Source: Paraprevotella sp.
GTDB lineage: Bacteria > Bacteroidota > Bacteroidia > Bacteroidales > Bacteroidaceae
Assembly: GCA_017937925.1 (NCBI GenBank)
Contig: JAGBCQ010000010.1
Span: 1-64,000 of the forward strand
DNA length: 64,000 bases
Reading direction: 5' to 3'
The notes below the pieces were generated by a model, which ran no database searches, was not told where the DNA came from, and saw only the letters and a list, made by a program, of their open reading frames with translations. The position numbers and the translations under genes are program-made. Of this stretch, positions 25,081-49,635 are shown one piece after another. Positions within the stretch are counted from its first letter, which is position 1. Every line of letters starts with the position of its first letter.

Positions 25081-27111
25081 ATGCGAACCATTACCTTCAT
25101 ACTGCTATATGTCGCTGCGCTCGTCTTGGGCTTGGCTACTTTTATTGAAGCCATCGGTGGCACACCAGCAACACAGGACATCATATACGGCACGGCTTGG
25201 TTCAAGACCTTATGGACCATCTTAATCGTCTTAATGATGATGGTTCTATACAAAATGAATGTATGGAAACGCATTCACATCCTCATTTTACACATTGCCT
25301 TTGCTTGCATATTGATAGGGGCATTGACAACGGCTTTCACATCCCAAAAAGGCATGTTACACTTAAGAGTAGGCGTACCGCTTGAAAAGTTCGTGGATAA
25401 AGGGAAACACTTGCATCAACTGCCTTTTACGCTCCGCTTGGATAGTTTTAAGGTAGAATACTACGAAGGGACAGAAGCACCGGCGGACTACGTCAGTCAT
25501 ATCACATGTAATTATCACGATGACACACCTGACACTCCGGTCCGAATCTCCATGAATAAAATCTTCTCATCAAAAGGTTACCGCCTCTACCAAATGTCTT
25601 ACGATGAAGACATGCAAGGTTCATGGCTCACTGTGAACCATGACCCATGGGGTACAACCATTACTTATGTCGGATTTATTCTCTTAGTCATCGGAATGAT
25701 ATATTCCCTCTGCTCTCCTCAATCGGGATTTCGAAAACTTCTGCGCCATCCATTGCTAAAGAAAAGTAGTCTGATTGTTCTACTTGCCTGTTCTTTCACT
25801 CATGCTCATGCAGAAGATTCCTTACCTGCCGTCAATAGGCGTCAAGCAGATAGTCTGCGTACCCAACAAGTTATTTATCATGACAGAACAACGATTCTCA
25901 ACACATTGGCACATGACTTTGTACAGAAGGTTTATGGAAAATCATCTTACAGAGGACTATCTGCCGAGCAAGTCATCAGCAGTTGGATGTTGTACCCTGA
26001 CGCATGGAATAATACACCTATTATATATATAAAGGATGCGACACTGCGCAAGCGTCTGAATATTGAAGGAGATTATGCCCGTCTTACCGACCTTTACAAT
26101 CAAGCAGAATACAAACTGCAAGCCATCTGGCAACAAGAGAAGACCAAGCAAAGCAAATTATCCAAAGCAATTAGAGAAACCGATGAAAAAGTAGGACTCA
26201 TCCTCATGCTCATACAGGGGCAACTGATTCGTCCTATTCCAAATGACATAACACCACTGAACGAACATCGGATTATGGCAGAATTGGTTTACAATAGTAT
26301 TCCTTTCAGCAAAATTCTATTCATGTTCAATCTCACCTTGGGAATTTTGGCTTTCGGCCTTCTACTGTATAGGATATTAAGACAAAAGGACGAGGGGCAT
26401 ATCAGTCGCAGTATATGGAAAGGTCTTCTCGTAACCGCCACCCTTTTTCATACTATAGGCTACGGATTAAGATGGTACATCAGTGGCAATGTTCCACTGA
26501 GCAATGGTTACGAAACCATGCAATTCGTAGCGCTCTGCATCCTTATCATCGGATGTTTACTCTATCGTCGTTTCCCTTACACCCGTCCATTTGCGTTTCT
26601 TCTCTCTGGCTTTACCTTATTAGTAGCTTACCTCGGACAGATGAATCCGCAAATCACTCCTCTTATGCCGGTATTGATTTCGCCATGGTTGAGTTATCAC
26701 GTGTCGTTGATTATGATGTCCTATGCGCTGTTTGCATTTATATGGTTGAACGCTATCCTATCTTTGTTACTCAGCTACCGCTATCCGCATGAGAACGAAC
26801 AAGTGGAGCGGCTCACGATACTTAGTCGTCTGTTACTCTATCCCGCAACATTCCTTTTAGGTATCGGCATCATTTTAGGTTCTGTGTGGGCGAATGAGTC
26901 TTGGGGCAGTTATTGGTCGTGGGACCCTAAAGAAGTCTGGGCTTTGGTGGCATTCATCATTTATGGTATTCCTCTGCACTCTCAAAGCATGAAATGCTGG
27001 CGCAACACCCGCACTTTCCACCTATATATGTTTTTTGCTTTCTTTGTCATCCTTATGACCTATTTCGGCGTCAACTACCTACTTGGTGGTATGCACAGTT
27101 ATGCGAACTGA
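25081..27111 (+). CDS. ccsA: Cytochrome c maturation protein, ResB-CcsA fusion
   Basis: 676 residues. The N-terminal part (about 1-230) has three to four membrane spans with a ResB-like periplasmic segment; a second large soluble segment (about 235-410) follows; the C-terminal part (about 420-670) is CcsA/CcmC-like with the haem-handling tryptophan-rich motif WGSYWSWDPKEVWAL. System II proteins of this kind deliver haem to apocytochromes c in the periplasm. Its last 11 codons plus stop (LLGGMHSYAN and stop) are repeated exactly twice more downstream (28255-28290 and 29313-29350), so this 3' end looks like an integration target. It lies in the lipoprotein-Rid-ccsA unit. Confidence 0.85.
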   Translation: MRTITFILLYVAALVLGLATFIEAIGGTPATQDIIYGTAWFKTLWTILIVLMMMVLYKMNVWKRIHILILHIAFACILIGALTTAFTSQKGMLHLRVGVPLEKFVDKGKHLHQLPFTLRLDSFKVEYYEGTEAPADYVSHITCNYHDDTPDTPVRISMNKIFSSKGYRLYQMSYDEDMQGSWLTVNHDPWGTTITYVGFILLVIGMIYSLCSPQSGFRKLLRHPLLKKSSLIVLLACSFTHAHAEDSLPAVNRRQADSLRTQQVIYHDRTTILNTLAHDFVQKVYGKSSYRGLSAEQVISSWMLYPDAWNNTPIIYIKDATLRKRLNIEGDYARLTDLYNQAEYKLQAIWQQEKTKQSKLSKAIRETDEKVGLILMLIQGQLIRPIPNDITPLNEHRIMAELVYNSIPFSKILFMFNLTLGILAFGLLLYRILRQKDEGHISRSIWKGLLVTATLFHTIGYGLRWYISGNVPLSNGYETMQFVALCILIIGCLLYRRFPYTRPFAFLLSGFTLLVAYLGQMNPQITPLMPVLISPWLSYHVSLIMMSYALFAFIWLNAILSLLLSYRYPHENEQVERLTILSRLLLYPATFLLGIGIILGSVWANESWGSYWSWDPKEVWALVAFIIYGIPLHSQSMKCWRNTRTFHLYMFFAFFVILMTYFGVNYLLGGMHSYAN

Positions 27112-27112
27112 C
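27073..27112 (+). repeat. Cassette repeat copy 1 (native ccsA 3' end)
   Basis: The last codons and TGA stop of ccsA. 27077-27112 (36 bp) is identical to copy 2, and 27073-27109 (37 bp) is identical to copy 3. It contains two small dyads: TACC-N8-GGTA and CAGTT-N5-AACTG, the latter spanning the end of the gene. Confidence 0.9.
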
Positions 27113-27151
27113 AGATCAATTATTGATTTTATAGTTCCTGAGAAATAAAGG

Positions 27152-27207
27152 AAACAGGCTTTATTTGAATCTAATCTCAGAAGATTTATTTCAAATAAAG
27201 CCCGTTT
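27152..27207. terminator. Strong hairpin between ccsA and the convergent barrel-protein gene
   Basis: Arms of 18 nt (27152-27169 and 27190-27207) pair at 17 of 18 positions with a 20-nt loop; the core is GGCTTTATTTGAA. Being nearly symmetric, it could stop transcription from both ccsA and the opposing gene. Confidence 0.55.
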
Positions 27208-27287
27208 CAAAAATCAATCTTAGTAGATTTTGCTATTTTCGGACGTTAAATTATAATACTTTTATTCAATTTTGAATTCTCAATTTC

Positions 27288-28133
27288 TTAAAATGTCCAA
27301 CCTAAACGAATCGCAGGTTCTACTTTAAAACGAACTGAAGTCGTACGCAACTCATCTTCATATTTCACTTCTGTTTCTTCAGTTTTCGTCTTTCCATCTA
27401 ATGAATTATAACTCGATGTTAATTTTTTTTCTTCTCGTTCCAATACTTTATGAGAGTTTATATTCAATCCTAACTCTGCACCGATATATAGACCTTTATA
27501 AAGATAAAAATCTAAACCAGTAAAAATACTTGCTGCAACTCCAAAATAAGCTTCATCAGCATTTACTCCGTAACCCTCGTAACCAGAAGGTATCATGTTT
27601 GAATATTCGCTTGAGGAACTTTGTATAACTGTATACGCATCATTCCAGTATGTCGCTTTATAGAAAGACTCGCTGCTCGTTTCTCCCTCAGCAGATACAA
27701 AATGCTTATATATACCTATCTGAGCACCAGCATATAAGCTTATACGTTTATGAATATTAAAATGACGTTCATAACCTAAATCGAGACTAAAATCACCCCA
27801 TTTTGCTTTCATTTCAGTATTAGTAAAATAATCGTCTATATCATCCCCATCCATATCTCTACTTGCTTCGTTATTATACTTCTTAGAATCCATACCTAAA
27901 CCTATTCTTAACCTTAAGGCATTCTTGTCGTTCAAAAAGTAACGGAACTTCAAAGCATAACCGTTTTCAAGACTGAACATATTACCATCATTTTCAAATG
28001 GTGTAAAATTAAGTTCAGTACTGAACGAACCTTTTGTTGGCTTAAACTGACTTTCTTGTGCATTAACATCGGTTACACAGAATACTGTGAATACTGTGCC
28101 TACCATTCCTAATAAAAACTTTTTCATATACAT
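27288..28133 (-). CDS. Outer-membrane beta-barrel protein (cassette 1 cargo)
   Basis: 281 residues (or 279 if the second Met is used) with a signal peptide ending near VNAQ. The mature part shows alternating hydrophobic strands and ends in RLGWTF, the C-terminal aromatic typical of outer-membrane barrels. Segments such as GDFSLDLGYERHFNIHKRISLYAGAQ and LYIGAELGLNINS resemble OmpW/opacity-type porin-like proteins. An acidic loop (DMDGDDIDD) could bind cations. Function unknown. It is antisense to ccsA and lies wholly between two copies of the ccsA 3'-end repeat, suggesting acquisition as a cassette. Confidence 0.75.
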   Translation of the reverse strand: MYMKKFLLGMVGTVFTVFCVTDVNAQESQFKPTKGSFSTELNFTPFENDGNMFSLENGYALKFRYFLNDKNALRLRIGLGMDSKKYNNEASRDMDGDDIDDYFTNTEMKAKWGDFSLDLGYERHFNIHKRISLYAGAQIGIYKHFVSAEGETSSESFYKATYWNDAYTVIQSSSSEYSNMIPSGYEGYGVNADEAYFGVAASIFTGLDFYLYKGLYIGAELGLNINSHKVLEREEKKLTSSYNSLDGKTKTEETEVKYEDELRTTSVRFKVEPAIRLGWTF

Positions 28134-28208
28134 AATTTTAAATAAAATAGATAATAATTAACCTTATAAAGGTAAGGTATCTTACACTATTACTCTTTTT
28201 TATTAAGT

Positions 28209-28239
28209 AACTTTAACTACTTATTGAGAAACTTTAACT
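28209..28239. promoter_or_regulatory. Direct repeats upstream of the barrel-protein gene
   Basis: AACTTTAACT occurs at 28209-28218 and 28230-28239, exactly 21 bp apart, 75-106 bp upstream of the start at 28133. Two-turn spacing is compatible with tandem binding of a regulator; no regulator is known. Confidence 0.3.
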
Positions 28240-28254
28240 GCAATACACAATAGC

Positions 28255-28290
28255 ACCTACTTGGTGGTATGCACAGTTATGCGAACTGAC
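28255..28290 (+). repeat. Cassette repeat copy 2
   Basis: 36 bp identical to the native ccsA end at 27077-27112, including the reading LLGGMHSYAN and TGA. Here it is not attached to any ccsA coding sequence, so it is a duplicated junction. Confidence 0.9.
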
Positions 28291-28344
28291 GGAGCAAAGA
28301 TTCTGTTAAAGCATAAAGTCGGAAAAATATCTTTTAACAGCCCC

Positions 28345-28422
28345 TGTCATTCTGAACAAAGTGAAGAATCTCTTTCGAAAACCAAAGAGATTCCTCGTCA
28401 CTATCGCTCCCACGGAATGACA
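28345..28422. repeat. Palindromic interspersed repeat (REP/MITE-like)
   Basis: 78 bp opening TGTCATTCTGAAC and closing GGAATGACA, with an inner GAAGAATCTCTTT/AAAGAGATTCCTC stem. This resembles a widespread interspersed palindrome found between bacterial genes (frame reading CHSEQSEES). It lies downstream of the lipoprotein gene inside cassette 2. Confidence 0.6.
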
Positions 28423-28485
28423 ATTCAAAAACTCTGCCAGAAAAACTTCTCTATCCCCTTGTACGGAGCGTAAGAGGATATTCTC

Positions 28486-29178
28486 TTAACGCACCACCGC
28501 ACGCACAGCAAGACCGTTACAACGATCTATCCAATAGAAATTACATCCTATTGAACTAGTTTCTATATACCATGCATCATCAGCTCCGCTGTCATCTACT
28601 GGATAATCCTCTAGTATAGAACTAGACCAATAGGCTCCAAATGTTTGGCCATTGCCAAGTTCGTTAGCAGGAAGAAATATGCTGTTACCGTTAGGGCCAA
28701 CCACTTTACAACCTTTGACACCGTTTTGGGAGAACCACACCCATGAACAAAACTTTTCTAATTCTTCCATTTCTTCACAGGTCGGCATCCGCCAATTTTC
28801 TCCCCAATTGGAAGTAGCGGCATCATCTTCGAGTTCTAATGTCATTTTGTTATCTATAGTTCCCCAATCCGCATCAGGGCAATATTTGGTTAATTTATCA
28901 GAACTACCATTACACCACTTATAATTACTCCAATCGTAAGTTTTCTTAGGTTTTGTTTCACCCCAAGCAAACTTATAGCCATAATCTTTAGGCGAATCTG
29001 CGCCAATGTTACGATCTGCCCAAAGTGTACCGCTCGGTAAACCTAAGTCTACAGCAACTCCCTCATCAGATTTGTTATAATTACATTTACAACTACTTTC
29101 TAGGGTCATTCCAAACACAAACACTAACAAAGCGGTCAAAAGTCGCCAATCTAAAAGTCTTTTCATCGTCTCATGCAC
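28486..29178 (-). CDS. FISUMP-type lipoprotein (cassette 2 cargo)
   Basis: 230 residues (226 if translation starts at the second Met, 29166). A hydrophobic leader ends near LESSCKC, a possible lipobox. The mature part matches the Fibrobacter succinogenes major paralogous domain: VDLGLPSGTLWADRNIG, YGYKFAWGETKPK, WRMPTCEEMEEL, YWSSS and GLAVRAVVR. Such proteins are abundant surface or secreted proteins of Bacteroidales and Fibrobacteres with no defined activity. The gene lies between two ccsA-end repeats and is preceded by a -7 box and a G10 tract on its strand. Confidence 0.8.
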   Translation of the reverse strand: MHETMKRLLDWRLLTALLVFVFGMTLESSCKCNYNKSDEGVAVDLGLPSGTLWADRNIGADSPKDYGYKFAWGETKPKKTYDWSNYKWCNGSSDKLTKYCPDADWGTIDNKMTLELEDDAATSNWGENWRMPTCEEMEELEKFCSWVWFSQNGVKGCKVVGPNGNSIFLPANELGNGQTFGAYWSSSILEDYPVDDSGADDAWYIETSSIGCNFYWIDRCNGLAVRAVVR

Positions 29179-29227
29179 TTATCCGTGTCGTGCGCAACTT
29201 CTATATTAACTTATTTATACATACACT

Positions 29228-29235
29228 CAAATGTA
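29228..29235 (-). promoter_or_regulatory. -7 box of the FISUMP lipoprotein gene
   Basis: TACATTTG on the minus strand matches TAnnTTTG, 50 bp upstream of the start at 29178. No good -33 box is seen; the region where it would lie is next to a homopolymeric tract. Confidence 0.4.
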
Positions 29236-29262
29236 AATATAAACAAAGTTGAACTTTTACCT

Positions 29263-29272
29263 CCCCCCCCCC
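29263..29272. repeat. Homopolymer of ten C (G on the gene strand)
   Basis: An uninterrupted C10 run lies about 28 bp upstream of the lipoprotein -7 box. Runs of this length are prone to slipped-strand length change. Its location just beyond the expected -33 region could affect promoter activity, but no evidence of variation can be seen in one sequence. Confidence 0.85.
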
Positions 29273-29312
29273 ATTCGTTAAATAACGTTAACAAAAGAAG
29301 AGGGTTACAAAG

Positions 29313-29349
29313 AACTACCTACTTGGTGGTATGCACAGTTATGCGAACT
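29313..29349 (+). repeat. Cassette repeat copy 3
   Basis: 37 bp identical to 27073-27109. It also reads as the end of ccsA but closes with TAA instead of TGA (AACTAA). It directly precedes the feoAB promoter, so this copy may be the ancestral right-hand end of the ccsA-feoAB junction. Confidence 0.9.
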
Positions 29350-29375
29350 AATTGTTAATTCACTGTTTTTAGGTA

Positions 29376-29406
29376 TTGTCATTATCCGCAAACGGTAGTA
29401 ATTTTG
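29376..29406 (+). promoter_or_regulatory. Promoter of feoAB
   Basis: TTG (29376-29378) and TAATTTTG (29399-29406) are separated by 20 nt, a full match to the Bacteroidetes -33/-7 pattern. The start codon at 29434 follows 28 bp downstream. It begins 26 bp after repeat copy 3, so both cassettes left it intact. Confidence 0.65.
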
Positions 29407-29433
29407 CAAGCAGAAACACTACACGTACAAATT

Positions 29434-31773
29434 ATGTCGAGATTATCGGATATTAAAGCAGGCGAAGAAGTTATTATATCCCACGTCAAGGGAAGCGGAG
29501 CCTTTCGTGCCCGTTTAAGCGAGATGGGATTTGTTGAGGGTAAATCCGTAAAGAAAATATTCTCCGCACCCATTGGGAACCCCATCGTTTTTGAGTTGAT
29601 GGGCAGTAAAATAGCCTTACGACGCGAAGAAGCCCGTAACATCCACGTCACAAACGACGTGAACAATGTACAAAGACATTTATCTGACACAGACGCGCCG
29701 AAAATCTATAGTCATCAATCAGACTCAACAGTTCAAGTCCCCATGACTTGTAATATGGGTTGCCCTAGTTGCAGCAATAAGCAATCAGACACCTCGACAA
29801 AAGAAGGCGAGATTACCATTGCACTTGTAGGCAATCCCAATTGCGGTAAGACCTCATTGTTCAACGCAGCTTCCGGTGGTCACGAACGTACAGGGAATTA
29901 TAGCGGTGTTACTGTCAGTTGTATTGTAGGACATATCAAATTCGAGGGACGCGCCGTTAAAATCATTGACCTTCCTGGGACATATTCACTTCGAGCGTTC
30001 AGTCCCGAAGAGGCATACGTTGCTCACGAATTGGAAAGCGGGCAAATAGATGCTGTTATCAACGTGCTTGATACGACCAATCTCGAACGTAATCTTTTAT
30101 TGACACTACAATTAAAAGAACGCAACATCCCTATTGTTGGCGCATTGAATATGTTCGATGAATTCGAGCAAAGTGAAAGTACAATTGATGTTGAGCGCTT
30201 GTCACAACGTTTGAATATTCCACTATGCCCCACCGTTGCACGACAGAAGAAAGGCATTGCCGAATTGTTACGCACAGCCATAGAGTTGGCCGACCAACAT
30301 ATTGCATTGCATCGTTCCGGTGTAAAAGGGCATAACCACACAGCTAACTGCTGCACCGACACCGAACATTGCTGCCATTGTACGAATCAGACCAATACAA
30401 ATCGACAGAATCACACCATTGACGCTGCTGTGAAAAGCGAGGCTGAAGCTTGCCCATGCACTTGTCGTGAACACGAGGATGCCGACCGTTACGCACACAT
30501 CACAGAATTGCTTCAAGGTGTCTATGAGAAGAGAAACGGAAAGATTGAGCATATCACTTCACTTATCGACCGTGTATGTTCTAACAAGTGGTTGGCATAC
30601 CCCTTGTTCATACTCATCATGTGGTTCATCTTTTGGCTGACATTTACAATCGGACAATACCCGATGGACTGGATTGACAGTGGTGTAGCATGGCTCACGG
30701 CTTATTGCCAAGAATTGATACCGGAAGGCGTCCTGCAAGCTCTTGTCTGCGACGGCATCTTAGGTGGTGTGGGCAGTGTCATCATCTTCCTTCCAAACAT
30801 CCTGATTTTGTATTTCCTCATTTCCATATTGGAGGACTCCGGTTATTTGGCAAGAGCCGCAATGTTGGCCGACCCTCTTTTGAACAAGTTAGGACTTCAT
30901 GGCAAGTCATTCATCCCCTTATTGATGGGATTTGGATGCAATGTTCCGGCTGTTATGGCAACACGCACCATTGAGAATGCTAAGAGCCGTCTGATTACCA
31001 TGTTGGTGACTCCCATGATATCATGTAGTGCACGCATTCCTGTTTATGTTGTATTCGCAGGCGCATTTTTCCCAAAAAACGCATCAACCGTCATGCTTGC
31101 CCTATATGCTTTAGGCATCCTTATGACACTCTTTGTCGCATGGGTGTTCAGTAAAATGTTCATGCGTAAGTTGGAGAGTCACTTCGTTATGGAACTGCCC
31201 CCCTATCGTCTGCCGGGTTATCGCGACGTATTCCGCCATACTTGGGAAAAGGGCCGACAATATCTTCGCAAAATGGGAGGTATCATCCTCGTTGCAAGTA
31301 TTGTTATTTGGGCATTGGGTTACTTCCCCCAAAGTAGTGATACCCTAAGTGAATCGGAGCAACAAGAACAATCCTACATGGGACAAATCGGTCATGCTAT
31401 AGAACCGGTCATTAAACCATTGGGCTATGATTGGCGCATGGGAGTGGGCATCCTCGCCGGTGTAGGAGCCAAGGAATTGATGGTCAGCTCACTCGGTGTT
31501 CTTTATGATTGTGATGCAGAAGATGCAGAAGTGGAAACCACCGAAGAAGCCTCACAAACGCGTTTAGCTCAGGTATTGAGTCAGCACACCACGCCTGAAG
31601 CTGCATTAAGCTACATGATTTTCGCTCTGCTATACTTCCCCTGTCTGGCAACCATCGCTGCCGTCAAGGGAGAAAGCGGAGGTTGGAAATGGGCTTTGTT
31701 CACTGCTGCCTATACCACTGTTTTGGCATACGTCATGGCTTTTGCCGTCTATCGAATTGCTTTATTGTTTTAA
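29434..31773 (+). CDS. feoB: Ferrous iron transporter, FeoA-FeoB fusion
   Basis: The ATG at 29434 (MSRLSDIKAGEE) is used; a TTG-started frame 30 bp upstream would include the promoter. 779 residues: an FeoA SH3-like domain (about 1-75), a linker with CNMGCPSC (Cys 106, 110, 113), a GTPase domain (G1 GNPNCGKTS about 133, G3 DLPGTYSL), a Cys/His-rich insert (about 295-355; NCCTDTEHCCHC, CPCTCREHED), and the FeoB membrane core with GFGCNVPAVMATRT. It imports Fe(II) across the inner membrane. The Cys/His clusters suggest metal binding or sensing. An OprB-like porin gene follows 56 bp downstream. Confidence 0.92.
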   Translation: MSRLSDIKAGEEVIISHVKGSGAFRARLSEMGFVEGKSVKKIFSAPIGNPIVFELMGSKIALRREEARNIHVTNDVNNVQRHLSDTDAPKIYSHQSDSTVQVPMTCNMGCPSCSNKQSDTSTKEGEITIALVGNPNCGKTSLFNAASGGHERTGNYSGVTVSCIVGHIKFEGRAVKIIDLPGTYSLRAFSPEEAYVAHELESGQIDAVINVLDTTNLERNLLLTLQLKERNIPIVGALNMFDEFEQSESTIDVERLSQRLNIPLCPTVARQKKGIAELLRTAIELADQHIALHRSGVKGHNHTANCCTDTEHCCHCTNQTNTNRQNHTIDAAVKSEAEACPCTCREHEDADRYAHITELLQGVYEKRNGKIEHITSLIDRVCSNKWLAYPLFILIMWFIFWLTFTIGQYPMDWIDSGVAWLTAYCQELIPEGVLQALVCDGILGGVGSVIIFLPNILILYFLISILEDSGYLARAAMLADPLLNKLGLHGKSFIPLLMGFGCNVPAVMATRTIENAKSRLITMLVTPMISCSARIPVYVVFAGAFFPKNASTVMLALYALGILMTLFVAWVFSKMFMRKLESHFVMELPPYRLPGYRDVFRHTWEKGRQYLRKMGGIILVASIVIWALGYFPQSSDTLSESEQQEQSYMGQIGHAIEPVIKPLGYDWRMGVGILAGVGAKELMVSSLGVLYDCDAEDAEVETTEEASQTRLAQVLSQHTTPEAALSYMIFALLYFPCLATIAAVKGESGGWKWALFTAAYTTVLAYVMAFAVYRIALLF

Positions 31774-32983: not shown

Positions 32984-33694
32984 TTACAAGTCTTCGCCAT
33001 TCGCCTTATTGTATTCATTATCATAATACATTGAGATAACATATCCGCCATGTAATTCTAATATACAAAACCAAACCGATTTATTAAATACATTTTCTGA
33101 AAGTCTTATAGGAACTTCTTTATAAACACTCTCATATAAATCTGACTTTTGGGCATCTGTAAGATTAACAAGTTCTTCTAATGAATATTTATCCTCCACG
33201 ATTTTTTTCACTTCTTTTTGTATCTGTATAGAGTCTACCAATTCCCAATTTATATTTTGACAAAAAGCTGCATAGTACCTTTTATTTTTTACAGTTATTC
33301 CGTATGAGATATCCTCGTCATCGGGAATAATGTAATTAAAGGGAGCTTTCGTGACATCTATTGGCACATATTTTTTATTATTTGCAAATTGATAACAAAG
33401 ATTGTTAAATCTTATTTGAATATCCCTTTCACTACTTGAATATGAATCTACTATATTGATTCTATAAACTCTATTATTATTAGTCACTATACTAACATTT
33501 ACATCTCTTCCATTAAATTCCCCTTCAAAACAGTCTAGTTCACGATTATAAGTAAAACCTTTCTCAATAAGTTTGCTTTTCATCGCCGCCTTCGTTCCAT
33601 CTACAGGAATTCCTAAAAATGTTGTTACGTCCTTTTGGGCATATACCCCAACAGTCATCAGTAAAACAATGATGATTGATAAAAACTTTTTCAT
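32984..33694 (-). CDS. Secreted protein of unknown function
   Basis: The start at 33694 gives MKKFLSIIIVLLMTVGVYAQ, a clean signal peptide; the open frame reaches 75 bp further into a structured leader and is not used. 236 residues. It begins TFLGIPVDGTKAAMKSKLIEKGF, a pattern of small Bacteroidales secreted proteins in which a threshold-like motif opens a mixed alpha/beta domain. It is otherwise unrecognised, with many Asn/Tyr residues. It converges on the porin gene and shares the terminator at 32930-32971. Its base composition is more A+T rich than the neighbours. Confidence 0.65.
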   Translation of the reverse strand: MKKFLSIIIVLLMTVGVYAQKDVTTFLGIPVDGTKAAMKSKLIEKGFTYNRELDCFEGEFNGRDVNVSIVTNNNRVYRINIVDSYSSSERDIQIRFNNLCYQFANNKKYVPIDVTKAPFNYIIPDDEDISYGITVKNKRYYAAFCQNINWELVDSIQIQKEVKKIVEDKYSLEELVNLTDAQKSDLYESVYKEVPIRLSENVFNKSVWFCILELHGGYVISMYYDNEYNKANGEDL

Positions 33695-33721
33695 ATTACT
33701 ACATTTATTAATTAATAAATA

Positions 33722-33850
33722 GAGGCGCAGACTTTCGCCATACGACTCTCGGCTCACCACAAACCACAAATGTATATGGGAAATCTGCGCCCATTATGGG
33801 GCAATCCCAATAACATTTGTTGCTCTTTCTCAAGGTGGTGAATGAGAGTC
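33722..33850 (-). ncRNA. Structured leader or small RNA
   Basis: 33744-33850 can fold into one rod: GACTCTC/GAGAGTC (33744-33750 with 33844-33850), TCACCAC/GTGGTGA (33754-33760 with 33835-33841), ACAAATGT/ACATTTGT (33766-33773 with 33813-33820), TGGGA/TCCCA (33777-33781 with 33805-33809) and an apical CCCAT/ATGGG. A competing stem GGCGCAGA/TCTGCGCC (33724-33731 with 33784-33791) would disrupt the tip. As part of the minus-strand transcript it would be the 5' leader of the gene at 33694; an independent RNA or a palindromic mobile repeat is equally possible. Strand is a guess. Confidence 0.4.
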
Positions 33851-42549: not shown

Positions 42550-45500
42550 CTATCGGACGAGGACTTTCTTGCCATCGACGATGTAGATACCCTTCTGGAT
42601 GCGTCCGACGCCCGACGCTAAACGCCCGACGAGGCGGCCCTGCAGGTCATAGACAGCATCGTCCTTTCCCACTTTCAACCCTTCATTTTCCACGTCCTCT
42701 ATGCCGTCTTCACCGTCGTCGAAAATCCAGCGCAGGGGTGCACTGCTGTCGGTGGGCAGTTGCAGGTAGGCTTTTCCGCCGTCGAGTATGCCTCCGGCCG
42801 AGATGCTCCAGTTGACAGTCTCGTCAGGCAGGACGCCGAGGATGAAGTTGGTGTAGCTGCCAGTGGTGGCATCGACCTGTGTCGGTTCGGTCACACCCAC
42901 CAGCAGGTTGGGCCACCACATGTCGGTTTCCTGCACGGGGACGGTGTAGTCGCCTTCGGCTCCGAGCAGCACGATGCCGGTGCCGCCCTGCACGTGGTCG
43001 GCACGTGTGAGGGTGATGGTGTTTTCGCTGGACGAGAATCCGGAGACGACGTAGCAGCGGAGGTCGTCGGTGCGGCCGGTGAAGTCGAGGTCGTAGGGCG
43101 AGCAGTAGGACATGACGCCGTAACGGTTCATGGCAATCTCGATTTCGGTCGGGTCTTCATCAGGCGTGCTGTCCTTGAATCCGATGCCGCGGATGAGGGG
43201 CGAGTAGCCGTTGTTCTTGTAGCTGACAGTGTGTACGCCCTGGATGCCTTCGGGCAGTTGCACCTCGAACACCTCGTAGGTGGTCATCACGCGTCCGATG
43301 GCGGTGCCGGGCAGGGTGGCGATGTGCTGGCCGTTGAGCACGACAGAAGCTGGATCGCCGTCGATGAGGGTGATGTTGTCAAGCCACAGGTCGATGGAGT
43401 TGGAGGCGGTGAGGTTCGACGTGCCGCTGTTGCCGTAGAGACTGGCTCCGTCGTATTGGATGTAGAAATAGGCTACATCGTACTTTCCTTCGCCAAAATC
43501 GACGTCGCCGACCACGGCTGCACGGTCTTTCCAGTCGCCCAGACGACACTGGGTTGGATCGCTGCCGTCGTACTGGCACGAGGTCTTGTAGCCCTGGAAC
43601 GTTCCCTTGTCGGCCCACTGGCTGACGGGGATGTAGAGGTCGGCAGTCGTCGTGCTGAGGGCCTCGTCGTCGTAGGCGGGGAGCCCGTTGTCAGGATCGA
43701 CGGCACGAACGAGTTGGACATCGGACACGCGCAGCTCGTAATTGCCCGTCTTGAAGTCGGCACACCATCCAAGGTAGATGTCGGAGGGCTCGTCGAGGGT
43801 GAACTCGATGCCCCACCAACCGGTGTGGGCATTGACAGCCATGTTGATGTATTGGCAGTCGGCGAGCGTGGTGACGGTCGATGTGGTGGGCAGGGTCTTG
43901 GCAACGAACATGTAGGTGGTGCCGTCGTCCATACCGTAGCAGCTGGTGGCATAGGCATTGAAGGCGTAACGTCCGGCGGGCAGGGTGATGTGTCGATAGA
44001 CTTTGGAGTCGCTTCCCACGAAGCCGTTGTACCATTGGTCCATGTTGATTTCGCACATGCCGTTGTAGGCGTCGGCTCCGTTGTTGATGCCGTCGTTACC
44101 CATGTCGATGCCCAGGTTCTCGACAGTCCAGTGCTTCAGGCTGCCATAGCGTTTGTACTGGCCGCCGACCATCTCATCGGTGCGTGCAAAGTTGCGGGCT
44201 TCGACCAGATACTTGACGGTGATGTCGCGCTGCTGCAGGCCGTAGTCGGCTACGAAGTTGACCTTGGTCTGTCCGAGCGACTTCATCATCTGGTCGGCCA
44301 CGGTCTTGCTGGTACGCATCACCTTGGTACGGTTGTAGAGGGTGGGACAGGTGGTGGCGTGTGCCTGTGCCAGCTGTTCGAGCTGGAACCATGCTGTGTT
44401 GTAGTCCTCGACATATTTCTTCACATTGCCCGTAGCCTTCGACTGATGGATGGCTGCAGCATAGGAGACGTCGCGGAAAATACGGAACATATAGTAGCCA
44501 TAGGCACAGGTGACTTTGACCACTTCGTTCAGATGCTCGTCCGAGCTGCTGAACTGCTCCGACAGTTGGAGGATGTCCTGCCAGTCGGCTACAGCCTCGT
44601 CGCGTTCCTGCAGCACGACCGCAGTCTTGGCTGCGTCGGGCATGGTGGGGAAGGTGATGTACTCGTCGCGCACCCACATGTTGTAGATGTCGTCGGGATG
44701 CTCAGCGCTCCGCAGCCCGCGAAGCACGGCGTGTTCGCTCTTGAGGGCGATGTTGCGGAAGATTTCAGCATTGGCAGCATCGAGTCCGAGGCGTGTGGTG
44801 CAGTAGTCGCTGAAGATCTGCTCCTCGCTCTGCTCGGGATGGAGTGCCCACTGGGCCATGACCCATGCGTTGAGGTCGCACCACAGCTCGTCCTTGATGT
44901 AGGGGCCTTCCCACCCGCCGCCGCGGGTCCAGGTCCACACGCCCGACAAGAGTCCGCTCTCATAGACATCGCGCAGACACCAATTCAATCCGGCGTCGCG
45001 ACGGGCGGCATCCTCTTCGAAGCCGTCGATCACACCGCGCGCCACATAGTTGGGAAATGCACCCTTGCCTTCGTATTCGCGGGCACACTGCACCTCGACC
45101 ACTTGCTGGTGCTGTCCCTGTCCGAGCACCTTGCTGAAGGGATCGCCACGATGGAAGTCGCCTTCGCAGTGCTTCACGCCCAGGTAGAGATTCTCGTGCG
45201 GCTCGACGCTGCTCGACACCTGGTTATACAGGCTGAGGTCCTCGTCGAACGACATCCAGGTGCGGAAGATGATTTTCTTGTTCAGACCCTCGCACACCAC
45301 CTCGCGCAGCAGTTGCATGAGCGGGATGATGCAGTTCTGGGCACTGGTCTTGTTCTGAATGCTGCCCTGATGATAGGGGGCATCCTGCAGGTAGGTCTCG
45401 CCGATGCGCACCACGAGTCCGTCGAGCTGGGGGAACTGTTCGAAACACTGCGTCATCTGATAGCGCAGAATCTCCTGCGTCGTTGCGTCGAGCGGATTTC

Positions 45501-48500
45501 CAAAAGTGCTGCCGATGCCCTTGAGCGACACCAAACGCTTGGGAAGCAACACGAGGTCGCACATGGCATAGACGTCGATGTTGTTGGCCTCACATTCGTC
45601 GTAGAGCGTATTGAGACGTGCGGCCTTGGCCTCGACCCACTGACGCTCGGCACTGCCTGCGGGCAGGACCTGCGGGTCGTAGTCGTCCCAGTCGATGGCC
45701 AGCGTGGGCGAATCGAAGAGGTAGAAACACTTGGCGTTGTAGCCCATCGCGGCCAACGTGGCGGGATTGTTGTACTGGCTGTCGTACAGGGCTTCGCCCG
45801 GATTGTGGTGCACCATGTCCATCACGAGGTGCAGGTCGCGGCGGCCAGCCTTTTCATCCACCGATGCACGGGCGGCTACCAGCGCGTCGAGCAACTGGTC
45901 GGTAGCGGCCTGCACAGCCGTATTCTCGCTGCTGGCATCGACGGTCATGGCCTGTGTGAGCGCGGTCTCCAGGGCTGTACGCACTGCGCTGTCCATGTTT
46001 TTCTGAACCAGAGCCTGCCCTTCGACCACGTGCTGACGGAGGAAGTCGATAAACTCCTGCGCATCGTAGCCGCGATAGCTGATGCGGAAGTCGTCGGCCT
46101 TGAACCATCCGGCACCAGTGGTCGATCGGCTGCCGTCGCTCAGCATATTGCCGGATTTCACGCCGAGCGTGAGTGCCTGACCTTCGTACAGAAGGATGTC
46201 AAGCGTCAAGTCTTCCAGCTGTTTGTCGCCCGATGTGGGTGTATGTCCCTGAAACGAAGCTATCTCCGACGCGTCGATATTCTTCCCATACATGCTCTTC
46301 GAACCGAAATAGCATGAGTAGCGGTTGGCGAAGAGCCGCTGGTTGGACACCATGCCCGCATTGTTCATCATCTTGCACGACACGACATAGTGGCCGACAG
46401 GCAGTCCTTCGACCGTCTGCGACATTTGAAAAGAGTCTGGCATCGGCACGGAACGATACCAACAGAGGGCCTTGCCGTCGTTGCCAACGCCGTCGTTGCT
46501 GATGCCATAACTGTTGCCAGTGAGCTCTCCGCTGCGGGTCCAGCCCCAGGGGTCGCCGCGCCAGGTGGAGGTCCAGGCCACGCCCTCGGCGGTGTACTCA
46601 AAGTTAGGGTTGACCATGCGGGACGTATAGGATACGTTTCCCTCGAACGACTCGAGCAACTCGAGCTTGAAATTATCGACTCCGACAATCTGTTCCTTGC
46701 CGCTGACCGTGTGACTGATGCTGAAGCCCAGTTCGACAGCTGCCGCTTCGTTGACCGTGAACTCGACACTGAGGTTGTTCCAACCGGCAGCATCGCTCTT
46801 GGTGGACGATGTGGGGCAGGCGGTGGTGGTGCTGCCTGCAAAGAGGTATGCTTTGTTGCCAGCGTCGGCATTGTACTGCAGCATATCGGCTGTGAGGCGA
46901 TAGCGTCCAGGTTGCAGGTTGACGGTCTGCAAGATACGGAACTTCGGCGTCGAGATGCGCTTATAGCTCAGACGTGCCCAGTAGGTTTTGTCGCCACGCG
47001 TCGTGGAATCGATCATCGTAAAGCTGCCCGTGACGAGGTTGGAAAAGAGGTCGGCCGTGGTGAGGCAGCTGAGGTCGTCGCTGTTCTTGTTCCAGTCAAC
47101 GGTCCATCCCTCGGGCTTGTAGATGGCGCGATCGGACACAGGCTGCTCGCTGTGCTTGACGTAGCTGCCCTCGAAGTCGGGATTGGTCAGATAGCGTGTG
47201 GTGACGTCCTTCGGACCAGACGTGTCTTGCTTGAGCAGTTTCACCTGATCGACACGAAACTCCTGGGTATTGCTGCCCTGCGTGAGGTCGATCTGCCAGC
47301 CGAGACAAACCGACGTGGTGGCGTCGAGGGTGAACTGAATGCCGTAGTATTTGCCATCGTTGGCGATACACTTATTGAGAGCATAGTAGGCCAGCGAAGC
47401 ATCAGGAAGCTGGCTGGTCGTAGTCAGGCTTGTCGATGCGAAGATGTAGGCTTGGTCGTTGACTGCATTTAATTGGTTATAGGTTCCGCCGAAAAAATAC
47501 TGTCCGGCAGGCAGTGTGACGCGGCGATAGAGTCGTGCGTTGGCCAAGTCGCTGCTGGTCGTGCCGTCCTCGCCTTTCCACACGCCGAGCATGAGCGACG
47601 AAGCACCGGTATAGTTGTCGATGCCGTTCTTCGTGCCGTTGGCTGTGTTTTTCTGGGGTACAGAAAAGTTCTCGACAGTCCAGTACATGGGTGTTCCGAA
47701 ACGCGAGGTGCTGCCATCGGTGCGGCAGAAGCCGCTGGCCTCGACGAGTTTGTCGGTCGTGAGGTCTGTGCCTTCGTCGCTGCTCAACGCACCTCCCTCA
47801 CAGAATCCTTCCTCGACGTAGGTCTGATAGGCTGTGCGGAGCGTGTTGACGGCAGCCTCAATGTCGGCATCGGTGGCGGTGCTGGTGATGGTTTTGGCTG
47901 CGTTGACCTGTTGCTGAAGCGTGGCGTAGGCCTCGGCAGAGTATTTGCCAGTGTTCACTCCGCTGGTGGGCTCGATCATCGACAGCTGAGCCTCGATGGC
48001 GGTAATGAGCTCCTGCAGCTGGTCGTAGGTCGATGCCTCGTCGTCGAAGGTGATTTCGAAGACGGGAGCGATGGGGTTGGGGTGCGTGGCTGGCACGTTG
48101 ACCGTCAGTCCGTCGGCGTTGTGTGTGAAGGCGACGTCGCCATAGCCGAGCAGCTTCACGCTATTGACCTTTCCGCTGTAGGAGGCTGCGGTGATGCCGA
48201 ACGCCTTGAAGGTGAAGTCGCCTGCGGTGGGCCACTGCATGATGGTGGCATAGACGGTGGAGCCTTTGGCATTGTAGCGCACGTCGGCAGCGGTGTAGTT
48301 GAAGCCTTCGTTAAATCCCTGCGCATTGAGTGGGTTGACAGTCTCGGCGAGGGGTCCTTCGCCAAAGGTTTTCCACGGACGTGTGCCGTAGATGCTCTCC
48401 TTGTTGATGTCCATCCACGCCTTGATGTCGAGGACGACGGCGCGTTCTTTCTCATCGATGGTACCGTTGCCACGCACGGGGATGCTGAGCAAGAGGTTTC

Positions 48501-49635
48501 CGTTCTTCGACACGACATCGACCAGCATACGGACGACGGTGGCTGCCGACTTGTAGCCATTGCGGTCATAGACGCCTCGGTCGTAGTGCCAGGAGCCGAT
48601 GCAGGTGCAGGTTTGCCACGGCAGGTCCTGACAACGGTCGGGTATGCCGCGCTCAACGTCCCAGAGCAGACGCTGCTTCTGGTCGTCGTTGAGTATCTTT
48701 CCCATCACGACGACGTCCTGCTGACCGCCGTTGGCATTGGCACTCTGATTGTAGTAGTGGGCGAGGATGTTGTAGCCGATCTGATTGTCGCAATAGTAGA
48801 AAGGAAGCACCGAGTCGTCAAAGTAGATGGCACGGGGATGGTACTTATCAATACATTGCAGGACGCGGTTCTGGAACTTCTGCTTGTAGGCTGCGCTGGG
48901 CTGACTGGCTCCGTTGCCCCAGTTCCACTGGCTGTGGATGGCACCCACGTCCTGCCAGTTAGTGCTGTGGGCGTGCTGCTGGGCATAGAGTTCCTGGGGG
49001 TCGTAGCCTTCCCACCACTGCCCCACTCCGTCTGCTTTGGTGAGGTTGCCGTCGTAGGCCTGCGCACCTTCCATCCAGGTCCAGGTGTGGCTGGCATGGA
49101 TGGAGATACCGAGCGGCAGGCCGTACTTCTCGCAAGCCTCAGCCCACTCGCCGACGATGTCGCGCTTGGGACCCAGGTTCACCGAGTTCCACTCCTGATA
49201 GGGGCTGTCCCACAGGTCGAAGTTGTCGTGGTGGTTGCCCAGCGTCATGAAATACTTGGCGCCGGCACTGGCATAGAGCTGGATGAGTTCATCAGGATTC
49301 CACTGCTCGGCCTTCCAGTCGCGAATGAGTTCCTTTAGGCCATAGACCGAGGGGTCGCCGAAATGGCTGACGTGGTAGTTGTACTGGCCTTGGCCAGGAA
49401 AATACATGTGGCGTGCGTACCAGTCACCGTCTTCGGCCTGACACTGTGGACCCCAGTGGGCCCACAAACCAAATTTTGCATCGCGGAACCACTCGGGACA
49501 TTGCCAACCGGCAAGGCTTTCCCAGTTGGGCTCGAACGGACCTTCGGCCACACTGACGTCGGTCAGTGTCTGTGCATGGGCCGAAAGCGAGCAGGCTGCG
49601 GCCAGCACAAGAATTGTAGTTTTCAGAGTTTTCAT
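42550..49635 (-). CDS. Giant secreted GH29 alpha-L-fucosidase-like protein with a second glycosidase-like domain
   Basis: 2361 residues. Signal peptide (1-22). Residues about 35-530 are GH29: WFRDAKFGLWAHWG, TLGNHHDNFDLWDS and IYFDDS (nucleophile Asp, about 273). A FIVAR-like helical hairpin (about 535-610), a DUF5013-like sandwich (about 620-805) and two CBM-like domains (about 810-995 and 1000-1190) follow. Residues about 1265-1795 form a second, unassigned enzyme-like region (DLHLVMDMVHHNPGEALY, GLVVRIGETY, GVWTWTRGGGWEGPY). A second DUF5013-like copy (about 1805-1975), further beta domains and a YDLQGRL...GIYIVDGKK tail end it. Probably acts on fucosylated glycans; a dual-activity enzyme is likely. 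Divergent from an AraC-type regulator and G+C rich. Confidence 0.85.
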   Translation of the reverse strand: MKTLKTTILVLAAACSLSAHAQTLTDVSVAEGPFEPNWESLAGWQCPEWFRDAKFGLWAHWGPQCQAEDGDWYARHMYFPGQGQYNYHVSHFGDPSVYGLKELIRDWKAEQWNPDELIQLYASAGAKYFMTLGNHHDNFDLWDSPYQEWNSVNLGPKRDIVGEWAEACEKYGLPLGISIHASHTWTWMEGAQAYDGNLTKADGVGQWWEGYDPQELYAQQHAHSTNWQDVGAIHSQWNWGNGASQPSAAYKQKFQNRVLQCIDKYHPRAIYFDDSVLPFYYCDNQIGYNILAHYYNQSANANGGQQDVVVMGKILNDDQKQRLLWDVERGIPDRCQDLPWQTCTCIGSWHYDRGVYDRNGYKSAATVVRMLVDVVSKNGNLLLSIPVRGNGTIDEKERAVVLDIKAWMDINKESIYGTRPWKTFGEGPLAETVNPLNAQGFNEGFNYTAADVRYNAKGSTVYATIMQWPTAGDFTFKAFGITAASYSGKVNSVKLLGYGDVAFTHNADGLTVNVPATHPNPIAPVFEITFDDEASTYDQLQELITAIEAQLSMIEPTSGVNTGKYSAEAYATLQQQVNAAKTITSTATDADIEAAVNTLRTAYQTYVEEGFCEGGALSSDEGTDLTTDKLVEASGFCRTDGSTSRFGTPMYWTVENFSVPQKNTANGTKNGIDNYTGASSLMLGVWKGEDGTTSSDLANARLYRRVTLPAGQYFFGGTYNQLNAVNDQAYIFASTSLTTTSQLPDASLAYYALNKCIANDGKYYGIQFTLDATTSVCLGWQIDLTQGSNTQEFRVDQVKLLKQDTSGPKDVTTRYLTNPDFEGSYVKHSEQPVSDRAIYKPEGWTVDWNKNSDDLSCLTTADLFSNLVTGSFTMIDSTTRGDKTYWARLSYKRISTPKFRILQTVNLQPGRYRLTADMLQYNADAGNKAYLFAGSTTTACPTSSTKSDAAGWNNLSVEFTVNEAAAVELGFSISHTVSGKEQIVGVDNFKLELLESFEGNVSYTSRMVNPNFEYTAEGVAWTSTWRGDPWGWTRSGELTGNSYGISNDGVGNDGKALCWYRSVPMPDSFQMSQTVEGLPVGHYVVSCKMMNNAGMVSNQRLFANRYSCYFGSKSMYGKNIDASEIASFQGHTPTSGDKQLEDLTLDILLYEGQALTLGVKSGNMLSDGSRSTTGAGWFKADDFRISYRGYDAQEFIDFLRQHVVEGQALVQKNMDSAVRTALETALTQAMTVDASSENTAVQAATDQLLDALVAARASVDEKAGRRDLHLVMDMVHHNPGEALYDSQYNNPATLAAMGYNAKCFYLFDSPTLAIDWDDYDPQVLPAGSAERQWVEAKAARLNTLYDECEANNIDVYAMCDLVLLPKRLVSLKGIGSTFGNPLDATTQEILRYQMTQCFEQFPQLDGLVVRIGETYLQDAPYHQGSIQNKTSAQNCIIPLMQLLREVVCEGLNKKIIFRTWMSFDEDLSLYNQVSSSVEPHENLYLGVKHCEGDFHRGDPFSKVLGQGQHQQVVEVQCAREYEGKGAFPNYVARGVIDGFEEDAARRDAGLNWCLRDVYESGLLSGVWTWTRGGGWEGPYIKDELWCDLNAWVMAQWALHPEQSEEQIFSDYCTTRLGLDAANAEIFRNIALKSEHAVLRGLRSAEHPDDIYNMWVRDEYITFPTMPDAAKTAVVLQERDEAVADWQDILQLSEQFSSSDEHLNEVVKVTCAYGYYMFRIFRDVSYAAAIHQSKATGNVKKYVEDYNTAWFQLEQLAQAHATTCPTLYNRTKVMRTSKTVADQMMKSLGQTKVNFVADYGLQQRDITVKYLVEARNFARTDEMVGGQYKRYGSLKHWTVENLGIDMGNDGINNGADAYNGMCEINMDQWYNGFVGSDSKVYRHITLPAGRYAFNAYATSCYGMDDGTTYMFVAKTLPTTSTVTTLADCQYINMAVNAHTGWWGIEFTLDEPSDIYLGWCADFKTGNYELRVSDVQLVRAVDPDNGLPAYDDEALSTTTADLYIPVSQWADKGTFQGYKTSCQYDGSDPTQCRLGDWKDRAAVVGDVDFGEGKYDVAYFYIQYDGASLYGNSGTSNLTASNSIDLWLDNITLIDGDPASVVLNGQHIATLPGTAIGRVMTTYEVFEVQLPEGIQGVHTVSYKNNGYSPLIRGIGFKDSTPDEDPTEIEIAMNRYGVMSYCSPYDLDFTGRTDDLRCYVVSGFSSSENTITLTRADHVQGGTGIVLLGAEGDYTVPVQETDMWWPNLLVGVTEPTQVDATTGSYTNFILGVLPDETVNWSISAGGILDGGKAYLQLPTDSSAPLRWIFDDGEDGIEDVENEGLKVGKDDAVYDLQGRLVGRLASGVGRIQKGIYIVDGKKVLVR

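What the first reader, a model, noticed from the sequence alone, without database searches (positions are those of the whole stretch)
27073..29350. Serial cassettes inserted at the 3' end of ccsA, each rebuilding the gene end
Seen directly: the last 36-37 bp of ccsA, reading LLGGMHSYAN and stop, occur three times in one orientation at 27073-27112, 28255-28290 and 29313-29349. The spacing is 1178 and about 1062 bp. Each interval has exactly one complete gene, both on the minus strand, both encoding envelope proteins of unrelated families. Copy 3 keeps a valid stop (TAA) and sits directly before an intact feoAB promoter, so deleting both intervals would restore a simple ccsA-feoAB junction. Each repeat has two short dyads (TACC-N8-GGTA and CAGTT-N5-AACTG), reminiscent of a core recombination site. 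Known tyrosine-recombinase islands duplicate gene ends in this way, but normally carry an integrase. Here two sub-1.2-kb units lack one, suggesting a trans-mobilised cassette system in Bacteroidales that exchanges surface-protein genes. Template-switch duplication is the alternative.
Basis: partly seen in the sequence, partly recalled or inferred. Interest (0 to 1): 0.8.

Follow-up and report, generated by a model that had tools for sequence, protein, structure and literature searches.

The report
Genes inserted with long target duplication
In a draft Bacteroidales genome two genes appear to have been inserted one after the other behind ccsA, each insertion copying the last few dozen bases of ccsA so that no gene was broken; relatives show similar insertions, which looks like a known but unexplained way for single genes to move rather than a new mobile-element family.

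Summary
The repeat is real: the ccsA 3' end occurs three times (27073-27109, 28255-28287, 29313-29349) and nowhere else in this draft genome. Each interval holds one plausible gene, both minus-strand: a beta-barrel-like and a putative exported protein. Copy 3 is the native end: it lies exactly 40 nt from the feoAB promoter-like motif, as in 8 relatives with no insert.

Other inserts with duplicated ccsA ends: G006 (59 bp; near-identical G012 is empty) and, in another genus, G243 (360 bp). Similar repeats flank a VapD gene behind rpiB in G007 (100 bp) and a PIN-toxin gene in G006 (52 bp).

This fits 'insertion with long target duplication', known from Helicobacter restriction-modification genes, better than a site-specific cassette system. 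New: Bacteroidales host, other cargo, recurrence at one junction (3 of 121 family genomes with the ccsA pattern, 0 of 318 for an imperfect rpsI control; Fisher p 0.02, but 0.07 without the discovery genome). The mechanism is inferred; site-specific recombination is not excluded.

The parts
25081..27111 (+). ccsA-type cytochrome c biogenesis gene (ResB + Cytochrom_C_asm), intact; its stop TGA is completed by inserted bases (inference: the native stop in copy 3 is TAA)
   Evidence: Pfam PF05140 and PF01578; ORF; related genes in the genus set
27073..27109 (+). repeat copy 1, the 3' end of the functional ccsA (similarity to copy 2 runs to 27119)
27120..28254 (.). insert A, about 1.14 kb: gene plus upstream region and a terminator-like hairpin (27151-27208); GC 0.311 against 0.449 for the window
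   Evidence: (inverted repeat I1)
27288..28133 (-). gene A, 281 aa, outer-membrane beta-barrel-like protein
   Evidence: PF13505 at 28.1 bits, just under cut-off; relatives in 5 of 17 other genus genomes, not beside ccsA in the five neighbourhoods listed
28255..28287 (+). repeat copy 2 (33 bp exact to copies 1 and 3; to 28297 with copy 1, 41 of 43)
28288..29312 (.). insert B, about 1.03 kb; GC about 0.40
28486..29178 (-). gene B, 230 aa, putative exported protein/lipoprotein, weak Lcl_C match; matches in 10 of 17 other genus genomes, several with more than one; best match in G003 (60% aa identity)
29313..29349 (+). repeat copy 3, the native ccsA 3' end (AAC TAA) still attached to the feoAB upstream region
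   Evidence: AGGTATTG starts exactly 40 nt after the start of ATGCAC, as in 7 empty relatives and G006 copy 2; the eighth empty relative (G004) has AAGTATTG there
29371..29410 (+). conserved feoAB promoter-like stretch (AGGTATTG ... TAATTTTGCA)
   Evidence: sequence comparison; reading it as a Bacteroidales-type promoter is from memory
29434..31773 (+). feoAB fusion gene (FeoA + FeoB domains)
   Evidence: Pfam

Best explanation
Two single-gene DNA segments, probably acquired horizontally, were inserted one after the other at the 3' end of ccsA by a process that needs no element-encoded integrase and that duplicated a variable stretch of the recipient's own target (insertion with long target duplication). 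The likely order, which is inferred, is: segment B entered first with a 37-bp duplication of the ccsA end, leaving a functional ccsA (copy 1) on one side and the native end plus the feoAB promoter (copy 3) on the other. Segment A then entered at the ccsA/B junction with a 43-bp duplication that included the first bases of B, making copy 2. The local biochemistry is also inferred, not shown: a widely staggered break filled in around a captured fragment, replication template switching out of and back into ccsA, or recombination of incoming DNA that is homologous at one end and illegitimate at the other. Selection would explain why such events survive at gene ends: the upstream copy keeps the gene whole, and the downstream copy keeps the next gene's promoter in its native context.
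For: Shown: copy 3 is in native register with the feoAB promoter-like motif (40 nt), and 8 of 10 genus loci looked at have ccsA directly followed by feoAB. Shown: G006 has a 59-bp ccsA-end duplication (97%) around a 580-bp insert with a DUF6722 gene, and near-identical G012 has the empty site. Shown: G243, another genus, has a 360-bp duplication (97%) around a single ATPase gene. Shown: similar repeats at other targets, with 100 bp (96%) at the rpiB end around a 64-aa gene and a VapD-like gene in G007 and 52 of 52 bp around a PIN-toxin gene and partner upstream of a clostripain-family gene in G006. Duplicated stretches are the recipient's own version: the G000 repeats match their own ccsA at 33 of 33 core bases, while the ccsA ends of the other loci held then differ at 4 or more (the closest relative, G003, lacks this part). 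G007's repeat includes its own rpiB terminator, which differs by eye in the 15 other rpiB loci printed. Inserts have lower GC than their surroundings in G000-A, G006 and G007.
Against: Three of 121 family genomes carrying the ccsA-end pattern have a local duplicate against 0 of 318 for rpsI (Fisher p = 0.02; p = 0.07 without G000, where the finding arose). That hints at a site preference, which a purely random process would not predict, but rpsI lies in an operon and the genomes are related, so the control is imperfect. Inserts A and B share about 10 bp after the repeat (GAC-GA-CAA), which could be an element end instead of a nested duplication. Insert B (gene GC at the 37th percentile of own ORFs) and G243's insert (0.402 against 0.41) do not look foreign by GC. 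No donor locus was found, so junction microhomology could not be tested. No empty site was tested for the rpiB and PIN cases. The closest relative, G003, has a contig gap running from within ccsA to the start of feoA.
Confidence: 0.65

Rival explanations
1. The ccsA 3' end is an attachment site of a tyrosine (or other) recombinase. The two units are remnants of integrated elements that lost their integrase, or cassettes moved in trans.
For: Recurrence at the same gene end in G000 (two), G006 and G243; gene-end duplication is typical of such islands (recalled); inserts A and B share about 10 bp beyond the repeat. A paper read in passages says of one H. [quoted passage not shown]
Against: Duplication lengths 37, 43, 59 and 360 bp; dyads not kept in all copies. 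No tyrosine-recombinase motif among the window ORFs (one hit of a loose serine-recombinase regex lies in a 2361-aa protein at 42550-49635 and is probably chance). Only two tyrosine-recombinase-like ORFs by regex in the loci held: L253 (G007 C3) and L046, where a Xer-like ORF lies beyond feoAB, about 2.8 kb from ccsA; I saw no ccsA-end duplication reported for L046 in the 40 rows printed of 97. No second match in any of the 25 positives other than G000 in the order-level sample. Similar repeats at other genes. No match of the interval in the plasmid (72,556 records) or phage (50,697 records) collections and no exact repeat on viral contigs.
Confidence: 0.2
2. The array was imported or exchanged as a whole by homologous recombination through the flanking ccsA and feoAB genes (a minimal-mobile-element-like locus), with the repeats formed earlier elsewhere.
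For: Different single genes at one conserved junction in different species resemble such loci (recalled).
Against: This moves an array but does not explain the duplicated ends; G006's repeats carry its own ccsA version.
Confidence: 0.1
3. Assembly or binning artefact.
For: The genome is a draft, 78.6% complete in 33 contigs.
Against: Repeats of 33-43 bp are short, the flanks are unique in the search, and the pattern recurs in other assemblies (G006, G007, G243).
Confidence: 0.03

Closest known systems
Insertion with long target duplication (Nobusato et al. 2000; Furuta et al. 2010), Helicobacter pylori and restriction-modification genes
   Same: Gene(s) present in one genome and absent in a relative, flanked by a long direct repeat of variable length made from the target, not tied to a known mobile element. 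[quoted passage not shown]
   Different: Host is Bacteroidales; cargo here is a beta-barrel-like and a putative exported protein (elsewhere DUF6722, VapD-like, PIN toxin gene, a PDC-S27 ATPase), not restriction-modification; two insertions in series at one gene end. The two original papers were not read (Furuta not held; Nobusato known only through citing passages).
Tyrosine-recombinase islands that use gene 3' ends as attachment sites (recalled)
   Same: Gene end duplicated, gene function kept, tandem insertions possible.
   Different: No integrase recognised, no constant core length, no large element.
Gene transposition with flanking genic repeats in Arabidopsis (PMC2869330, passages read)
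   Same: Single genes flanked by direct repeats over 30 bp, most of which match the orthologous target site of a sister species; the authors cite the H. pylori case.
   Different: Eukaryote; the authors favour recombination of circles between existing repeats.
One-sided homologous, one-sided illegitimate recombination of incoming DNA in H. pylori (PabI paper, PMC4615327, passages read)
   Same: Proposed there for a 1577-bp duplication that sandwiches an insertion.
   Different: The insertion there is a ~50-kb integrative element and the duplicated stretch replaced part of it.
Integron gene cassettes / minimal mobile elements (recalled; for the latter only a search listing was seen)
   Same: Serial or exchangeable single-gene units at one place.
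   Different: Units are separated by copies of a host gene end; integron features were not tested.

Membership tests
Insertion with long target duplication | Empty allele in a close relative | tested here: met
   Direct for G006 against near-identical G012; for G000 through 8 genus relatives and the 40-nt register. The closest relative G003 is unassembled at this place. Not tested for the rpiB, PIN and G243 cases.
Insertion with long target duplication | Long, variable direct repeat derived from the target | tested here: met
   37, 43, 59, 360 bp at ccsA; 100 bp at rpiB; 52 bp upstream of a clostripain-family gene.
Insertion with long target duplication | No transposase or integrase in the insert | tested here: met
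   The genes recognised in six inserts were scanned (Pfam and/or NCBIfam and/or PADLOC); none matched a transposase or integrase family. Short overlapping ORFs were not scanned.
Insertion with long target duplication | Restriction-modification cargo (an association in the literature, not a definition) | tested here: not met
   None of the six inserts had a restriction-modification match; three carry toxin or candidate-defence genes (VapD-like, PIN, PDC-S27).
Tyrosine-recombinase gene-end islands | Integrase gene in or beside the element | tested here: not met
   Regex scans and ORF lists, so not exhaustive. An integrase acting in trans is not testable here.
Tyrosine-recombinase gene-end islands | Constant core/attachment sequence between events | tested here: not met
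   Different repeat extents and broken dyads.
Integron cassettes | attC site and IntI | not tested
   No dedicated model was run; the repeat is coding sequence of ccsA.
Composite transposon / IS-mediated | IS copies or terminal inverted repeats at the boundaries | tested here: inconclusive
   No inverted termini seen by eye in five inserts and no transposase among the scanned genes; no IS database was searched.

The most novel reading that the evidence does not exclude
The ccsA-feoAB junction of this family is a preferred docking place where single genes are added, stacked and, because the flanking repeats are direct and the native stop is retained, could be removed without a scar, by a host-encoded machinery that does not need an element of its own.
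Probability: 0.12. Interest if true: 0.8.

Novelty: new variant of a known kind. Interest (0 to 1): 0.45.

Why it matters
How single genes without mobile-element enzymes enter bacterial chromosomes is poorly understood. Long target duplications were reported around restriction-modification genes in Helicobacter in 2000, and the passages I read give no settled mechanism. Finding a like signature in Bacteroidales, with toxin, candidate-defence and envelope-type genes as cargo and with a near-identical sister showing the empty site, gives a signature that can be scanned for in gut bacteria. It also suggests why such events are seen at gene ends.

Tried and rejected
Dyads as a core recombination site: rejected, not present in all copies. 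Extra copies of the repeat elsewhere in the draft genome: none. The repeat on viral contigs, and the interval in the plasmid and phage collections: no match; gene A relatives on viral contigs: 4 candidate stretches, none confirmed. Second ccsA-pattern hits in G108 and G192 are separate ccsA genes, not end duplications; G259 has a detached 218-bp ccsA fragment at another locus. A paaK-like gene was found in G000, but its neighbourhood was not followed up. Repeats looked at and not counted: G010 C3 (tandem lipoprotein-like paralogs); G007 C3 114616/118145 (upstream of two paralogs), G007 C3 40442/44590 and G006 C25 10/2526 (dispersed-looking), G006 C2 52825/54798 (within one reading frame); G006 C2 36854/37745. 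Set aside from the listing alone, not inspected: the runs of repeats at near-constant offset in G007 C3 and G011 C1 (read as paralogs) and the repeats in the other loci (130 loci, 1,201,971 bases).

Literature: 'long target duplication' alone (19 papers), with restriction-modification and insertion (17 papers, 15 listed), with 'Bacteroides' (1 paper, on a Helicobacter enzyme); author and mobile-form terms (43 papers, 10 listed); gene-end/integrase terms (65 papers, 15 listed); direct-repeat/toxin-antitoxin terms (20 papers, 12 listed); minimal mobile elements (5); transformation terms (0). In these listings I saw no report of this in Bacteroidales. Papers were read only as passages: PMC1643837, PMC4978471, PMC2869330, PMC3031569, PMC3874152, PMC3154945, PMC4615327.
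Full report
Observation. The ccsA 3' end is present three times in one orientation. Copies 1 and 3 are identical over 37 bp. Copies 1 and 2 agree at 41 of 43, the last eight bases being beyond the ccsA stop. All three agree over 33 bp. A search of the own draft (2.06 Mb, 78.6% complete) found no further copy.

What is native and what is inserted. Ten ccsA loci of the same genus were laid out (17 other genus genomes were in the search, the remaining ones being divergent, fragmentary or broken there). In eight the ccsA stop is followed at once by the feoAB upstream region, one (G006) has an insert, and one contig ends. Exactly 40 nt after the start of ATGCAC lies AGGTATTG in seven of the eight and in G006 copy 2, and AAGTATTG in the eighth (G004). 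The window has AGGTATTG at that distance after copy 3, and the motif is absent from the 100 bases after copies 1 and 2. Copy 3 is therefore taken as the original end of ccsA, and the DNA between the end of copy 1 and the start of copy 3 as insertion. Insert A (about 1.14 kb) carries a beta-barrel-like gene with its own upstream region and a terminator-like hairpin. Its GC is 0.311 against 0.449 for the window, and its gene lies in the lowest 3.3% of 269 own ORFs. Insert B (about 1.03 kb) carries a putative exported protein of a family found in 10 of 17 other genus genomes; its gene GC is unremarkable (37th percentile). Pfam support for both is below the curated cut-offs.

Independent cases. 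G006 has a second ccsA end 639 bp downstream: 59 bp, 97%, around a 580-bp insert with a DUF6722 gene at GC 0.391 in a 0.571 background. Its near-identical sister G012 has the uninterrupted site. In a family-wide pattern search, 121 of 399 genomes matched the ccsA-end pattern exactly and six had more than one match. Inspection showed local end duplication in G000, G006 and G243; two separate ccsA genes in G108 and G192; and a detached fragment in G259. In G243 the duplication is 360 bp (97%) around a single ATPase gene that matches PADLOC candidate PDC-S27. An order-wide sample gave 25 positives besides G000, each with one match. A control pattern for the rpsI end matched 318 of 399 genomes; reading the table, one genome (G311) had two matches, on different contigs, and none had a local pair. 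The 3/121 against 0/318 contrast has Fisher p = 0.02, and 2/120 without the discovery genome has p = 0.07. Since rpsI sits in an operon, the genomes are related and changed second copies would be missed in both, the hot-spot claim is only suggestive.

Other targets. A repeat scan of fetched stretches (895,538 bases; 790,707; distances up to 5 kb) found like signatures away from ccsA. In G007 the last part of rpiB plus its terminator (100 bp, 96%) is repeated 693 bp downstream, with a 64-aa gene and a VapD-like gene between. The VapD reading rests on NCBIfam VapD below cut-off (46.9 against 100 bits) and on PDB matches to VapD chains (best E 6.5e-31); Pfam and PADLOC file the protein under the related Cas2 family. 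The 15 other rpiB loci printed have no repeated end and different terminators. In G006 C1 a 52-bp perfect repeat just upstream of a clostripain-family gene flanks a PIN-toxin gene and a partner gene without a family match. Tandem paralogs and dispersed repeats were set aside, some after inspection and some from the listing alone (see Tried and rejected).

Mechanism. Repeat lengths vary (37, 43, 52, 59, 100, 360). The repeats reproduce the recipient's own version of the target (for ccsA wobble bases, for the rpiB terminator). Five inserts compared by eye have no common ends, apart from about 10 bp shared by A and B, and no recombinase was recognised. This is what is expected if the target was duplicated in place during insertion. 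For the window the simplest history is nested: B first (37-bp duplication), then A at the ccsA/B junction (43-bp duplication that took along the first bases of B). The order and the biochemical route (fill-in of a staggered break, template switching, or one-sided illegitimate recombination of incoming DNA) are inference. Survival at gene ends follows if the upstream copy keeps the protein whole and the downstream copy keeps the neighbouring promoter in place.

Comparison with known systems. The pattern matches 'insertion with long target duplication', described for Helicobacter restriction-modification genes. It is known here only through passages of citing papers: the CGAT paper, a review giving 'in the order of 100 bp', PLoS One 2011, and a pan-genome paper that leaves site-specific insertion open. 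The original papers were not read. The present case differs in host, cargo and serial use of one gene end. Two features usual for tyrosine-recombinase islands (integrase present, constant core) were tested and not met, though an enzyme acting in trans remains possible.

Limits. The genomes are mostly drafts without names. The nearest relative (G003, 90% ccsA identity over residues 1-444) has a contig gap across this interval. Repeat scans covered only part of each genome. Integrase absence rests on a regex, family scans of the insert genes and ORF inspection.

Noticed in passing
29263-29272: A run of ten C lies about 85 nt upstream of gene B's start (G on the coding strand); such tracts can slip and switch expression on and off (recalled).
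   Followed up: no
28342-28422: Interspersed repeat (TGTCATTCTGAACAAAGTGAAGAATCTC...) downstream of gene B, with partial matches elsewhere in the own genome (C1, C6, C8, C12, C28).
   Followed up: no
L208:4100-4892 (G007 C7): rpiB 3' end plus terminator duplicated around a 64-aa gene and a VapD-like gene.
   Followed up: yes
L327:16254-17083 (G006 C1:56254-57083): 52-bp perfect direct repeat around a PIN-family toxin gene and partner, upstream of a clostripain-family gene; no sister-genome check made.
   Followed up: partly
L270:9146-10280 (G259 C39): A detached 218-bp ccsA 3'-end fragment (96%) lies between two copies of a 102-bp repeat at the 5' end of a 970-aa gene.
   Followed up: partly
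32984-33769: A 261-aa minus-strand gene lies between the OprB-like gene and the M16 peptidase-like gene; in G006 (L211, by eye) the corresponding gap holds repeats but no such gene was noted, so this stretch may also have gained DNA.
   Followed up: no
29371-29410: The feoAB promoter-like motif keeps a fixed 40-nt distance from the ccsA coding end in the eight empty loci compared although the stop codon position varies, which hints that the ccsA end is part of the feoAB control region.
   Followed up: partly
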